Assembly: GCF_020037015.1 (NCBI RefSeq)
Contig: NZ_JAIQDE010000005.1
Coordinates: 1-64,000, forward strand
Origin: Corallococcus sp. AS-1-6
GTDB lineage: Bacteria > Myxococcota > Myxococcia > Myxococcales > Myxococcaceae
Length of the DNA stretch: 64,000 nt
Direction: 5' to 3'
In this document: piece after piece, positions 46,401 through 52,400 of the stretch
How positions within the stretch are numbered: position 1 is the first letter of the stretch
How the letters are laid out: the number at the start of each line of letters is the position of its first letter
Translations under genes and position numbers: made by a program
Notes under the pieces: model-generated
Told to the model about the DNA's origin: nothing
Database searches by the model: none
What the model saw: the letters and a program-made list of their open reading frames with translations, nothing else

Positions 46401-49400
46401 GGAGCTGATGCACCGGCTGCCACCGGGCGCGATGCTCGGCGTGGCGCTGCCGGCGGCGGAGGTCCAGCCGCTGCTGTCCGGACGGCTGACGCTCGCGGCC
46501 GTGAACGCGCCGGACCGGTGTGTCGTCTCCGGGCCCGTGGACGAGGTGGAGCGCCTCCAGGCGGAGTTGCAGCAGCGCAAGGCGGGCGCGGTGCGCATGC
46601 CGTCGGGACATGCGTTCCACTCGGCGGACGTGGAGCCGTTGATGGTGGAGCTGGCGCGCGCGGTGGGGGCGCTCCAGCGGCACGAGCCTTCCGTGCGGTA
46701 CGTCTCCAGCCTCACGGGGGCGCTGGCGCGTCCGGGTGAGCTGGCCGCGCCGGAGTACTGGGCCACGCAGATGCGGCAGCCCGTGCGCTTCACGGACGCG
46801 GTGGGGGCGCTGCTGGAGGAAGGGTGCGGCGTGTTGCTGGAGGTGGGGCCCGGCCAGGACCTCACCCCGCTGATCCGCGCGTGCCTGGGCGAGGACCGGG
46901 AGCGCGTGAAGGCGCTCGCGTCACTGCGCAGGGGCGGTGCGACGACGGAGCAGTCGGGGTTGCTCCAGTGCGTGGGCGAGCTGTGGATGCAGGGGCTGGA
47001 GGTGGACTGGACCGCGTTCTACGCCCACGAGCAGCGCCGCCGCGTGCACCTGCCGACGTACCGGTTTCAGCGCAAGCGCTGCTGGGTGGAACCTCGCGGT
47101 CAGGACGGTGCGCCCGTGGTCACCGACGCAAGCGGGTCGCCCCAGGCTTCGAGCGTGCACAGCGGTAGTCCTGGGATGTCCTCCGCTTCGCCCGCGCTCA
47201 CAAGCGCGGCAGTGCCCCCCCCGCCCGTGGAGCCTCCTTCCCGCCCGGTTCCCGGGAGCCATGCGGTGACGTCTTCATCCTTGGAGCGCCCTGCCCTCCC
47301 GCCTCCGGGAGGCCGTGAGGACGCGCCTCGCGGTGACGTGGAGGTCCGCATCGCCACGCTGTGGCGTCAGCGGCTGGGCGTGGACTTCGTCGGGCGTGAT
47401 GACAACTTCCTGGAGCTGGGCGGCAACTCGCTGATGGCCGCGCAGCTCCTCAACCAGCTCCGCGACACCTTCCACGTCCAGGTGCCGCTGGCGGCCCTCT
47501 TCGAAGCGCCCACCGTCGCGGGGCTCGCCTCCCGCATCGAACCGCTGCTCCAACAGGCCCCGGCCCAGGAGCCCACGCGCGAGCTGCCGCTCGTGCCCCG
47601 ATCCCGGACGGAGCCGCTGCCCCTGTCCTTCGTGCAGGAGCGCGTCTGGCGCCTGGAGCAGCACCTGCCCGGCCTGTCCGCGTACACCATCCCCTTCGTC
47701 CTGCGCCTGGAGGGCCCCGCCGACGCCGCCGTCCTGGAGCGGGCCATCCAGGAGGTCGTCCAGCGCCACGAGGCCCTGCGCACCACCTACGACGCCGTGG
47801 ACGGACAGCCCGTGCAGCGCTTCCATCCCCACGTGCGCATCCCGCTCCCCCTCGTGGAAGTGGAAGGCACGCCCAGGGAACGCGAGGAGGCCGCCCTCTC
47901 CATCGCCCGCGAAGACGCCGCGCGCCCCTTCGACCTGGTGCGAGGCCCCGTGCTGCGCACCACGCTCGTGCGCCTGCGCGCGGACCTGCACCTGCTGGTC
48001 TGCGCCATCCACCACATCGTCTGCGACACGCTGTCCACGTCCCTCTTCCTCCAGGAGGTGGGGCAGCTCTACGCCGCCTTCCTCCAGGGCCAGCCGTCCC
48101 CGCTGGCGCCCCTGCCCGTGCAGTACGCGGACTTCGGCGCGTGGCAGCGGCAGTCGCTCGCGGAGTCGCGCTTCCCGGAACAGGAACAGTGGTGGCGCCA
48201 GCGCCTGGCCGGCATGCCGAGGCAGCTCGGCATCCCCACGGACCGGCCCCGTCCCGCGAGCTGCCCGCTCACCTCCGAGCGCATGGTGCTGGACTTCCCA
48301 CCGGAGCTCGCCGAGGCGCTCGTCGCCTTCGGACGCAGCGAGGGCTTCACGTCGTACATGACGGTGCTCGCCGCGTGGAACGCGCTCCTGCACCGCTACA
48401 CCGGTCAGGCGGACCTCATCGTCGGCACGCCCATCGGCAACCGCACGCGGCCGGAGCTGCTGCCGCTCATCGGCTACGTGGCGCACTCGGCCGCGTTCCG
48501 CACCCACGTGGGGGATGACCCGAGCTTCCGCGAGCTCCTGCACCGCGTGCGCCGCGAGGTCACCGACGTGCAGTCGCGGCCGGACGTGCCCTTCGAGCTG
48601 CTCGTCGAACAGCTCGTCCCCGGGCGCGACATCGGCCGGGAGCGCATGACGGACACGGTGTTCGTCTACCACTCGAACCTGGAGATGGGCGGCGACGCGC
48701 TGGCGGCCGTCGGGGCGCGAGGCACCTTCATCGAGGTCCCGGGCACGCCCGTGCAGTGGGGCGCCACCCTGTCGGACCTGACGCTCATCCTCACCGAGGA
48801 ACCCGGCCGCATCCACGGCGCGCTGGAGTACGCGACGGAGCTGTTCGACGCCTCCACCGCGCGGCGGATGCTGGAGCACCTCCAGGTGTTGCTCGGCGCG
48901 GCGCTGGCCCGGCCCGAGGAGCCCCTCTCCCGCCTGCCGCTGGCCACCGACGCCGAACGCCGCGCATGGCCCGCCCCCACGCCCGTCACGCAGGCCCCCG
49001 TCCTGCCCGCGCGGCTGCGCGAACACGCGCTGCGGCGGCCGGACGCCATCGCCGTGGAGCAGGCCGGGCGGACCTGGACCTGGCGGGAGCTGGCCTCGCG
49101 CGCGAGGAGGCTCGCATCGAACCTGCGGGAGCAGGGGCTGCGGCCGGGAGAGCCCGTGGCGCTCTGCCTCCGGGCATCGCCGGAGAAGCTGGCCGCGCTG
49201 TGGGGTGTGCTGGAGGCAGGCGGCGCGCCGGTGGCGCTCGGCCCCACGGACCTGGACTCGCTGGCCGTCTATGCCGTGGAAGGCAGCGCCGTGCCCCGGC
49301 TCATCACCTGGCGCGGGCTCTTCACTTCGGCACGCCTGGAGTCCTCGCGCGTCCTGCACGTCGAAGAGGTGCTGGGAGACGTGTCGCCGGCAACGGAGGC

Positions 49401-52400
49401 GCTGCCGCTTCCGGCGCCGGAGTCCCTCGCGTGGCTCCTGCCCATGGGTGCGGGCCAGCCCGCGTGGGCGTTGAGTCACGCGTCGCTCACGGGCTTCTTC
49501 GCGGGCCTGGATGCGCGGCTGCGTCCGGCGCCGGGCACCACCTGGCTCGCCGCGTCCGAACCCGCCCCCGAGAAGCCCGAGCTGGAGTCCCTCTGGGCCC
49601 TGTCTCGCGGCCTGCGCGTGCTGTACCCCTCCGAGGCCACCACGTCGCGCCGGGGCTCGCCGGACGAGGCGGCAGCGCGTCCGCTTCAGCTCAGCCTGTC
49701 GTACTTCGCCAACGACGAGGACTCGCTCTCCGGGCCCAAGTACGAGCTGCTGATGGAGGGCGCGAAGTTCGCGGACGCGAACGGCTTCTCCGCCATCTGG
49801 ACGCCCGAACGGCACTTCCACTCCTTCGGGGGCATCTACCCGCAGCCCGCGGTGGTCTCCGCGGCGCTCGCGTCCGTCACGAAGCACCTGCGCCTGCGCT
49901 CGGGCAGCGTGGTGCTGCCGCTGCATGATCCGCTGCTCGTCGCGGAGCAGTGGGCCGTGGTGGACAACCTGTCGCAGGGCCGCGTGGACGTGTCGGTGGC
50001 GACGGGCTGGCACGTGCAGGACTTCATCTTCGCGCCCGGGAACTACGCCGACCGGCGCAACATCCTGCTGCGCCACCTGGAGACGCTGCGAGGCCTGTGG
50101 CGGGGAGAGCGGCTGCGGCGTCCGGGCGGCAACGGCGTCACCGTGGAGGTGGGCCTGCGCCCGAAGCCGGTGCAGCGCGAGCTGCCCGTGTGGCTCACCG
50201 CCACCGCGAACCCGGAGACGTTCCGGCTCGCGGGCGAGCTGGGCGCGGGTGTGCTCACGGGCCTCTTCGCCCACTCGCTGGAGGAGCTGAAGCCGAAGGT
50301 GGCCCTCTACCGCGAGGCGTGGCGCCGCAACGGCCACCCGGGGCGGGGCCACATCACCTGCATGCTGCACACGTACCTGGGGGACGACGAGGCGGAGGTC
50401 CTGAGGCGGGTGCGCAAGCCGCTGCTCGCGTACTTCCGGAGTTCGGCGGACATCACCACGTCGCTGCTCGCCGCGCAGGGATACCAGGGGGAGATCGCCA
50501 AGGTGTCCCGCGAGGACATCGACGCGCTGCTGGAGCACACCTTCGAGCACCACGCGAAGGGCACCGGCCTCATCGGCACGGTGGAGAGCGGCATCCAGCG
50601 GCTGCGCGAGGTGCGGGCCTCGGACGTGGACGAGGTGACGTGCCTCATCGACTTCGGCCTGGAGACGCCGGTCGTCCTGGAAGGGCTCAAGCGCCTGGCC
50701 AGGGCGCGAGAGGCCGTGGCCGCCGACGCGGCGTCGCACTCGCGGCGCGTGCGCGGCGAGCGGGAGACGGATGCGGCGGAGGTGCTGTCCCTGGCGAAGC
50801 AGTCAGGCGCGGTACTGGTGAACACCACGGCACGGCTGGCCCGCGCGTTGACGGACCTCCCGGGAGCGCGGGAGGCCCTGGCTCCGGTGGGGGCATGGGT
50901 CCTGGAGAACGCATCCGCGGAGCTGGCGTCGGCGCTCCAGCGGACCTCGGGTGGGGACGTGCTGCTCGCGGGGGAGGCCCGGGAGGGAGGCCTGCTGCCG
51001 CGTACGCCGGAGGAGAAGCTGCCGGCGGGCCTGGAGGTCTGGGTGTTGGACGCGGCCGGGGCGCCCGTGCCCGCGGGCGTCGTCGGAGAGCTGGCCCTGT
51101 CGGGCGCGGGGCTGCCCGCCGCGCTTTGGAAGGTGACGGGCGAAGCGCCGAACCGGTTGGCGCCGCATCCGAGGAGTGGCTCCGCGAGCCTCTACCGCAC
51201 GGGCCGCGCCGTGCGCCTGCGCGCCGATGGTCGTGTCGAAGCCGTGAACGTCCCTGGCTTCAAGCTGCCCGCGCCACCTGCCGCCACGTCTGGTCCGGAC
51301 GCCACCTTGCACGCCCCTGCGTCCAAGGTCGCGGCACGCCCCGCGTCGCCCGCCGTCACGAGCGCTCCGGACGCGACCTTGAGCGCCCCTGCGTCCAAGC
51401 CGCCCGCGCCGCGCCCCGCATCGCCTGACGCCACGAGCGCCCCGGAAGCGACCGTGAACGCCCCTGCGTCCAAGCCGTCCTCGCCACGCCCTGCGTCGCC
51501 CGCCGTCACGAGCGCTCCGGACGCGACCTTGCACGGGGTGTCCCTCAGCGCAGCCGGTGCGATCCAGACGATCCCGCGAGCGCCGCGCGACCGGCCGTTG
51601 CCGCTGTCGTTCGCGCAGCAGCGCCTCTGGTACCTCCAGGAACTGGAGCCGGAGAGCACCGCCTACAACAACGCGATCATCTTCCGGCTCACGGGCGCGC
51701 TGAACGGCACCGCGCTCCAGACGGCGCTCCACGCGCTCGTGGAGCGCCATGAGGTCCTGCGCACCACCTACGCGCTGGGCGACACCGGGGCCGTGCAGGT
51801 CATCCACGCGACCGGCACCCTGCCCCTGGAGACGGAGGACGTCCCCGGCGACACGGCCGAGGCGCGGGAGGCCGCCATGCTCCGCCGCTGCCAGGCGTAC
51901 ACCGCGACGCCCTTCCACCTGGGCACGGGTCCAGTGGCGCGCGCGCTGTTGCTGAGGCTGGCTCCGGACACGCACGTCCTGCACCTGCTCCTGCACCACG
52001 TCGTCTCCGATGCCTGGTGCGCCCTGGTCCTCAGCCGCGAGCTGCCGGTCCTCTACGCCTGCGCCAGCGCCGGTGTGCCCTCCGTCCTGCCGCCCTTGCC
52101 GGTGCAGTACGCCGACTACGCCGTGTGGCAGCGCGCGTGGCTGACCGGGCCGGTGCTGGAGGAGCAGGCCCGCTGGTGGAAGGACCTGCTCCAGGGCACG
52201 CCGCCGCTGGAGTTGCCCACCGACCATCCCCGCCCCGCCGCGCAGTCCTACGCGGGCGCCGCGCACGCCTTCCACCTGCCTCGCGAGCTGTCCGAGCCGC
52301 TCCTCGCGCTGGGCCGCCGTGGAGGCGCCACGTCCTTCATGGTCCTGATGGCGCTGTTCCAGGTGCTGCTCTCCCGCACCTCCGGACAGGACGACTTCGC

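What the first reader, a model, noticed from the sequence alone, without database searches (positions are those of the whole stretch)
47600..51285. Dead adenylation domain kept as a scaffold for a luciferase-like monooxygenase, with no carrier protein
The module has a C domain, then an A-domain frame that has lost A3 (TSGSTG replaced by MGAGQP), A4, A5, the Asp of YRTGD and all of A8-A10, and no PCP follows. The inserted FMN-dependent monooxygenase keeps all its recognisable motifs. Two C domains thus stand in series between the PKS ACP and the next working A-PCP. The simplest reading is an in-line oxidation station acting on the beta-keto or aminoacyl-malonyl intermediate tethered to a neighbouring carrier. 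A functional tailoring domain embedded in a decayed host domain of this kind is unusual.
Basis: partly seen in the sequence, partly recalled or inferred. Interest (0 to 1): 0.8.

Follow-up and report, generated by a model that had tools for sequence, protein, structure and literature searches.

The report
Pseudo-module carrying an in-line monooxygenase
In a giant myxobacterial peptide-polyketide assembly line, one whole building module has lost its ability to load an amino acid and its carrier domain, yet it is kept, in more than 60 related assembly lines, apparently as a holder for an oxygen-inserting enzyme that acts on the chain while it sits on the preceding carrier.

Summary
Confirmed. 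The 10,734-aa synthetase (31315-63519) reads ...C-A-T-KS-AT-ACP-C1-a'-LLM-a''-C2-A-T... Between ACP and C2 there is no working A domain and no carrier. The LLM belongs to the MupA/Atu3671 family (TIGR04020) and keeps 70 of 87 family-conserved positions.

It is not a local oddity. All 66 relatives placed in this class show the same layout, and none has a carrier there. Two paralogues lie in the same genome. LLM, a' and C1 trees each give one clade. The a'/LLM arrangement descends from intact A-domains carrying the same LLM at the same A4/A5 point; A_sub and PCP were then lost. a'+a'' still model as a complete A_core fold, and dN/dS is 0.17-0.33.

The upstream ACP is always GGNS (58/58). The PKS module is invariant while amino-acid codes on both sides vary.

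Best reading: a carrier-less pseudo-module that oxidises the alpha-carbon of the ACP-bound beta-ketoacyl chain. It works like the mupirocin alpha-hydroxylation bimodule, with C1 and the dead A in place of KS0. New variant of a known kind. Chemistry is inferred, not shown.

The parts
31315..63519 (+). Giant hybrid NRPS-PKS ORF, 10734 aa (GTG start as listed): 4x(C-A-T), KS-AT-ACP, C1-a'-LLM-a'', C2-A-T, 2x(C-A-T), C-T-TE
42388..43824 (+). A domain of the module before the PKS; code DALYLVGVFK (hydrophobic, substrate not assigned); its carrier at 43909-44106
44281..45417 (+). Ketosynthase with intact catalytic residues (TACSTG, EAHGTAT, NVGH), so an extending KS
46036..46944 (+). Acyltransferase, GHSFGEY and HAFH (malonyl-type motif, established knowledge); no room for a ketoreductase before the ACP
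47347..47538 (+). PKS carrier (ACP, PCP-like) with LGGNSL; the GGNS form is invariant in this position across relatives (58/58)
47617..48963 (+). C1: condensation-fold domain with altered active-site motif HHIVCDT (canonical HHxxxDG)
48010..48036 (+). C1 motif HHIVCDTLS; HHxxxDT in 61 of 61 relatives with a full C1
49021..49632 (+). a': N-terminal part of a dead adenylation domain (A1-A4 region), motifs lost
49444..49461 (+). A3 remnant MGAGQP where working A domains have the P-loop TSGSTG
49690..50703 (+). FMN-dependent luciferase-like monooxygenase of the MupA/Atu3671 family (TIGR04020, 494 bits in whole-genome search)
50704..51264 (+). a'': C-terminal part of A_core (A5-A7 region) ending at the hinge; A_sub (A8-A10) absent
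51193..51207 (+). A7 remnant YRTGR (working domains YRTGD)
51265..51597 (+). Pro/Ala/Ser linker in place of A_sub and PCP; contains a 75-bp tandem repeat (51294-51535, 3.3 copies); very variable in relatives
51598..52929 (+). C2: condensation domain of the next working module, HHVVSDA
52990..54438 (+). Next working A domain, code DVWHVCLVDK (Ser-like by comparison from memory); its PCP at 54526-54714

Best explanation
C1-a'-LLM-a'' is a carrier-less pseudo-module. The upstream modules make a peptidyl-aminoacyl thioester, and the KS-AT-ACP module adds one malonate unit and leaves the beta-keto group (read from domains: active KS, malonyl-type AT motif, no KR). The LLM then uses FMNH2 from a separate cellular reductase, plus O2, to oxidise the activated alpha-carbon of the ACP-bound beta-ketoacyl chain, most simply to an alpha-hydroxy-beta-keto thioester (inferred from MupA). 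C1 and the dead A_core are kept as a rigid platform that holds the LLM and docks the ACP. C1 does not condense because it has no acceptor of its own (inferred). C2 then transfers the oxidised chain from the ACP to the amino acid loaded by the next A-PCP (inferred from order). The pseudo-module arose once from a working C-[A-LLM-A]-PCP module by loss of A_sub and PCP and decay of the A motifs.
For: LLM family and conserved columns (70 of 87). Closest solved structure is the PuwE OX domain 6ket, E 8e-102 and Z 38.4 over 334 residues. All 66 class-ii loci have no T between LLM and C2. Every one with KS and AT in the same frame has the PKS module just upstream, with AT-ACP gap median 144 aa (55 loci) and ACP motif GGNS 58/58. 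Amino-acid codes vary on both sides (25 codes before the KS, 16 after C2), so the constant partner of the LLM is the PKS unit. C1 is HHxxxDT in 61/61 and in none of the 243 other C domains counted. Pairwise dN/dS: C1 0.12-0.16, LLM 0.08-0.15, a' 0.20-0.33, a'' 0.17-0.28. The A_core fold is retained: Z 33.9 to 1amu over 364 residues, ending at 427. Single origin: LLM clade 63 rows, support 100/98; a' clade 100 among A-LLM-A hosts; C1 clade 100. Relatives place the LLM directly between PKS carrier and C (L094, L105) or as a gene between PKS and NRPS (L121, L128). MupA needs the beta-keto group, an ACP and an FMN reductase (PMC10953402). The PuwE monooxygenase at a PKS-NRPS junction is proposed to give a 2-hydroxy acyl (PMC4219810).
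Against: No product of this cluster is known here and no activity was measured. Seventeen family-conserved LLM positions differ or vary in this class, for example Arg at 6208 of other members is Leu here, so the chemistry may have shifted. One sub-clade has TPERRFH for TPERHFH. C1 keeps both His and the Asp, so it cannot be called inactive from sequence. The whole cassette is inherited as one lineage, so invariant motifs partly reflect descent. No dedicated FMN reductase was seen in the ORFs annotated here (not a full search).
Confidence: 0.65

Rival explanations
1. Same station, different chemistry: the LLM performs further or other oxidation, such as alpha-hydroxylation followed by Baeyer-Villiger-type or oxidative C-C cleavage, shortening the malonate extension by one carbon to an alpha-keto-beta-amino acid unit.
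For: [quoted passage not shown] A relative of this synthetase (14284-aa ORF) has the size I recall for the myxoprincomide synthetase, whose product I recall to contain 2-oxo-beta-leucine; aminoacyl + malonate minus one carbon would fit that. Class-specific substitutions in the LLM.
Against: The myxoprincomide link is from memory and its paper was not readable here. The A code before the KS in that ORF (DGMHIVGIIK) is not an obvious Val code.
Confidence: 0.25
2. The LLM acts on the aminoacyl- or peptidyl-PCP of the following (C2-A-T) or preceding module, as its A-LLM-A ancestors presumably act on their own PCP.
For: In class i the LLM sits in a working A domain followed by its own PCP, so the ancestral substrate was probably PCP-bound.
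Against: Downstream and upstream amino-acid codes vary widely (16 and 25 types) while the PKS unit is invariant. LLM genes or domains without any A remnant also sit at PKS-to-C junctions. The ACP motif is invariant.
Confidence: 0.08
3. The whole pseudo-module is a skipped, non-functional relic.
For: The A motifs and PCP are gone and the linker is a free-running repeat.
Against: dN/dS of LLM 0.08-0.15 and C1 0.12-0.16; conservation across at least five genera down to 44-48% identity with intact frames; no decayed LLM found.
Confidence: 0.04
4. C1, not C2, makes the peptide bond: C1 takes the chain from the ACP and uses the aminoacyl-PCP beyond C2 as acceptor, and C2 is the silent one.
For: C1 keeps HH and D and is at least as conserved as C2. 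C2 here has HHxxxDA, and 37 of 67 C2 domains have A for G.
Against: C2 stands directly before its A-PCP as in a normal module, and in other sub-clades C2 is canonical HHxxxDG while C1 is still DT. The G->T change in C1 is universal, and the working C1 of class i has DG or DA.
Confidence: 0.1
5. A stand-alone A domain or carrier acts in trans to complete the module, so that an extra amino acid is added here.
For: The terminal module of the same protein is C-T-TE without its own A, so some loading in trans may exist in this line.
Against: Here the carrier itself is missing, in every relative. C1 lacks the canonical motif.
Confidence: 0.03

Closest known systems
Mupirocin alpha-hydroxylation bimodule (MupA, ACP_D4, MmpA KS0)
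   Same: LLM of the same TIGR04020 family; acts next to a carrier holding a beta-ketoacyl chain; a non-elongating domain stands between donor carrier and the next working module
   Different: There the oxygenase is a separate trans-acting protein and the non-elongating domain is a KS0 in a trans-AT PKS. Here the oxygenase is built in cis into a dead A domain and the presumed non-elongating domain is a C domain with HHxxxDT (PMC10953402)
PuwE-type PKS-(aminotransferase)-OX-C-A-PCP (puwainaphycins), OX structure 6ket
   Same: Closest solved LLM; oxygenase domain sits between PKS carrier and the next C domain and is proposed to make a 2-hydroxy acyl unit
   Different: There OX is fused directly with no extra C or A remnant, and an aminotransferase acts too (PMC4219810)
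Interrupted A domains with LLM/MOx insert (A-MOx; class i here; from memory MtaG/MelG of myxothiazol and melithiazol)
   Same: Same LLM family at the same A4/A5 insertion point; evident ancestor by a' and LLM trees
   Different: Class i keeps A3, A5, A7, A8 and A10 and is followed by a PCP. Here A function, A_sub and PCP are lost
X domain of glycopeptide-antibiotic NRPS
   Same: A C-fold domain of a former module, left without a working A domain, turned into a platform for oxygenases acting on a carrier-bound chain (PMC8949500, PMC11546977); Z 37.3 to 4tx2 for C1
   Different: X has HRxxxDD, lies before the TE and recruits P450s in trans. Here the motif is HHxxxDT, the place is a PKS-NRPS junction and the oxygenase is an FMN LLM in cis
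Putative myxoprincomide synthetase of Myxococcus (14284-aa ORF in Myxococcus sp. CA023)
   Same: Carries the same KS-AT-ACP-C1-a'-LLM-a''-C2 cassette, about 66-67% identical over a'-LLM-a''
   Different: More modules, different amino-acid codes; the identity with MXAN_3779 rests on remembered size only

Membership tests
MupA/Atu3671 LLM family (TIGR04020) | Score over curated cut-off 244.45 bits | tested here: met
   489.7 bits
MupA/Atu3671 LLM family (TIGR04020) | Family-conserved positions kept | tested here: met
   70 of 87 columns that are at least 93% conserved in other members are kept in at least 58 of 63 class-ii rows
MupA/Atu3671 LLM family (TIGR04020) | FMNH2-dependent alpha-oxidation of a carrier-bound substrate | not testable with these tools
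   needs assay
Working (interrupted) adenylation domain | A3 P-loop, A5, A7 Asp, A8 and A10 Lys present | tested here: not met
   none of the class-ii rows aligned there has them
Working (interrupted) adenylation domain | Followed by a carrier protein | tested here: not met
   0 of 66
Working (interrupted) adenylation domain | A_core fold with LLM inserted between A4 and A5 | tested here: met
   insertion at A-HMM about 211/213 in both classes; A_core Z 33-35 on a predicted model
Alpha-hydroxylation bimodule (mupirocin type) | MupA-family oxygenase beside a carrier with a beta-keto chain | tested here: met
   active KS, no room for KR, ACP just upstream
Alpha-hydroxylation bimodule (mupirocin type) | Non-elongating KS0 at the junction | tested here: not met
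   no second KS; a C domain stands there
Glycopeptide X domain | HRxxxDD motif and place between last T and TE | tested here: not met
   HHxxxDT, mid-assembly
Glycopeptide X domain | C/E fold | tested here: met
   Z 37.3, 421 residues to 4tx2
Canonical condensation domain (C1) | HHxxxDG motif | tested here: not met
   HHxxxDT, 61/61 relatives
PuwE-type OX module | Homologous OX between PKS carrier and C | tested here: met
   6ket 344 bits; order ACP-(C1-a')-LLM-(a'')-C2
PuwE-type OX module | Aminotransferase before OX | tested here: not met
   none in Pfam annotation of the protein
Myxoprincomide synthetase | Identity of the 14284-aa relative with MXAN_3779 | not tested
   reference sequence not available; size remembered only

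The most novel reading that the evidence does not exclude
A previously undescribed domain class: a non-condensing C domain (HHxxxDT) fused to a dead A_core that together dock a dedicated GGNS-type ACP and present its beta-ketoacyl chain to the embedded LLM. This would be the NRPS counterpart of the KS0 alpha-hydroxylation bimodule, arisen once in Myxococcota from an A-MOx module and since copied into many assembly lines.
Probability: 0.45. Interest if true: 0.65.

Novelty: new variant of a known kind. Interest (0 to 1): 0.5.

Why it matters
It shows how an elongation module can lose its loading and carrier parts in one step and be kept as an oxidation station. It gives sequence signatures (ACP GGNS, C1 HHxxxDT, a'-LLM-a'' without PCP) by which genome-mining software can stop counting such modules as amino-acid-adding ones and instead predict an oxidised malonate-derived unit. 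It also offers a natural cis-fused oxidation cassette for engineering hybrid assembly lines, and a clean system to test what non-condensing C domains do.

Tried and rejected
The myxoprincomide and fabrubactin primary papers are not held, so the product chemistry of the nearest named relatives could not be read. Searches for 2-oxo-beta-leucine and MtaG/MelG gave nothing usable. I considered annotation error or frameshift (rejected: one open frame, same in all relatives), a hidden carrier (rejected), local decay of one gene (rejected: 66 loci, one clade), and the LLM serving the neighbouring amino acid (made unlikely). My simple motif script for A codes failed on most domains and was replaced by an alignment-based one. 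Presence of this class outside Myxococcota was not exhaustively tested: eight plasmid records from other phyla were opened, and none is of this class. Two cassettes in a record labelled Comamonas look misassigned.
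Full report
WHAT IS THERE. The finding lies in one open frame, 31315-63519, 10,734 aa. Pfam, NCBIfam and domain models built from the protein itself give: four C-A-T modules; KS-AT-ACP; C1 (47617-48963); a partial A domain a'; a luciferase-like monooxygenase LLM (49690-50703); a second A fragment a''; a linker; C2 (from 51598) with A-T; two more C-A-T; and C-T-TE. Working A domains of the same protein score 724-791 bits on the A model; the two fragments score 66 and 35. 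The alignment shows loss of A3 (MGAGQP), A4, A5, the Asp of A7, and absence of A8-A10. No carrier lies between LLM and C2.

IT IS A CONSERVED FAMILY, NOT A LOCAL RUIN. A search of species genomes with a'-LLM-a'' gave 53 loci, down to about 43% identity, from Corallococcus, Myxococcus, Archangium, Citreicoccus, Pyxidicoccus and one Myxococcaceae MAG. The same genome holds two more copies (C45, C51). Wherever the contig reaches, all have C-A-T-KS-AT-T-C1-a'-LLM-a''-C2-A-T. Of 66 loci placed in this class, none has a carrier after the LLM. TIGR04020 over its cut-off was found in 65 of 195 Myxococcota genomes; this count includes other architectures.

WHERE IT COMES FROM. Among TIGR04020 neighbours I found four settings: (i) C-[A-LLM-A]-T with a complete A domain and PCP, in myxobacteria, cyanobacteria, Streptomyces, Deinococcus, Rhodobacterales and Burkholderia; (ii) the present class; (iii) LLM directly between PKS ACP and C without any A remnant (L094, L105); (iv) a stand-alone LLM gene between a PKS and an NRPS gene (Agrobacterium vitis L121, Pseudanabaena L128) or an LLM fused in front of C (L125). 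In (i) and (ii) the LLM enters the A domain at the same point, between A4 and A5. LLM sequences of class ii form one clade (63 rows, support 100/98) while class i is paraphyletic on the unrooted tree. The a' fragments form one clade (100) among class-i A domains rather than among the ordinary A domains of these lines, although the stem is long and supports around it are modest; a grouping of i+ii is not rejected (p-AU 0.72). C1 of class ii is one clade (100). All class-ii A remnants end at A-HMM 383-391, the hinge before A_sub. The simplest history is one loss of A_sub plus PCP from an A-LLM-A module, with decay of the A motifs.

WHAT IS STILL UNDER SELECTION. Against eight close relatives, dN/dS (NG86) is 0.12-0.16 for C1, 0.08-0.15 for LLM, 0.20-0.33 for a', 0.17-0.28 for a'', 0.11-0.21 for C2 and about 0.2 for the next working A. 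The linker has about 24-33% identity. So a' and a'' are constrained, less than the enzymes but far from freely drifting. AlphaFold2 from the family alignment gives C1-a'-LLM-a'' at mean pLDDT 78 (pTM 0.58) and a'-LLM-a'' at 81 (pTM 0.59). In the latter model a'+a'' match A_core structures at Z 33-35 over about 365 residues (for example 1amu residues 33-427) and the LLM matches the PuwE OX domain 6ket at Z 38.4. A dead A domain kept as a fold is therefore well supported, within the limits of a predicted model.

C1 AND THE ACP ARE PART OF THE UNIT. C1 has HHxxxDT in 61 of 61 full copies. In the count over the same loci, DT was seen only in this class: 0 of 158 other C domains, 0 of 67 following C2 domains, 0 of 18 class-i C domains (two rows counted there among class ii without DT are absent from the stricter list). 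The ACP before C1 has GGNS in 58 of 58, against 5 of 22 other PKS ACPs and 7 of 238 PCPs. Descent from one cassette explains part of this, but the cassettes differ by up to 55% in sequence. The KS is of the extending type and the AT-ACP gap (median 144 aa) leaves no room for a ketoreductase. The amino-acid codes before the KS (25 types) and after C2 (16 types) vary. The constant partner of the LLM is thus the malonate-extended, beta-keto, ACP-bound chain.

HOW IT MOST LIKELY WORKS. Shown by sequence: order of domains, active KS, no KR, intact LLM signature, dead A, no carrier, altered C1. Shown elsewhere for the same LLM family: MupA hydroxylates the alpha-carbon of an ACP-bound beta-ketothioester, needs the beta-keto group and an ACP, takes FMNH2 from a general reductase, and belongs to a bimodule with a non-elongating KS0 (PMC10953402). 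PuwE carries an oxygenase between PKS and NRPS modules, proposed to make the 2-hydroxy group (PMC4219810). FbnE, a flavin-dependent monooxygenase, is proposed to make the alpha-hydroxycarboxylates of fabrubactin (PMC12971057). Inferred: here the LLM oxidises the alpha-carbon on the ACP; C1 and dead A_core are the platform; C2 does the next condensation. I put 0.65 on this. The main open point is the chemistry: simple alpha-hydroxylation, or oxidation with loss of one carbon as reported for calyculin and mandelalide LLMs (PMC8739492).

RELATION TO WHAT IS KNOWN. It works like the alpha-hydroxylation bimodule, but is not one by definition because no KS0 is present. It recalls the glycopeptide X domain, another left-over C domain of a lost module turned into an oxygenase platform (PMC8949500), but lacks its motif and place. 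It descends from, but no longer is, an interrupted A domain; the reviews read here list a8/a9 (and a2/a3) as usual insertion sites (PMC11355689, PMC8949500). A Myxococcus relative lies in a 14,284-aa ORF, the size I remember for the myxoprincomide synthetase MXAN_3779; if so, a chemically characterised family member may already exist. That link is from memory and untested. I therefore call it a new variant of a known kind, interest 0.5.

Noticed in passing
60601-63516: The terminal module of the giant protein is C-T-TE without an A domain, so its carrier must be loaded in trans or stay empty.
   Followed up: no
51294-51535: 75-bp tandem repeat (3.3 copies) coding a Pro/Ala/Ser linker exactly where A_sub and PCP are missing; linker length and sequence vary strongly among relatives.
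   Followed up: partly
6258-22884, - strand: A second PKS-NRPS cluster: KS-AT-DH-ACP-C-A-T-TE (6258-14312), KS-AT fragment-ACP (14312-17332, AT matched over only 47 positions) and KS-AT-AT-DH with two carriers (17338-22884).
   Followed up: partly
25708-28192, - strand: A 2OG-Fe(II) oxygenase and a GntR-type regulator lie between the two clusters.
   Followed up: no
L108 (G000:C45) and L109 (G000:C51): Two further C1-a'-LLM-a'' pseudo-modules in the same genome, in other NRPS-PKS lines.
   Followed up: partly
L039 and L049 (BNCN01, 'Comamonas sp. KCTC 72670'): Two myxobacterial-type cassettes in a record labelled Comamonas; they group inside Myxococcus clades, so the record is probably mislabelled or contaminated.
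   Followed up: no
L046-L057 sub-clade (incl. Myxococcus xanthus AM003 L047): 15 LLM sequences have TPERRFHSFG instead of TPERHFHSFG, suggesting an altered active-site residue and perhaps different chemistry.
   Followed up: no
G195 C108 (75493 and 93728), G136 C1, G118 C1: A class-i A-LLM-A module and a class-ii pseudo-module lie about 18 kb apart in several Myxococcus-type genomes, so one assembly line seems to carry both kinds.
   Followed up: no
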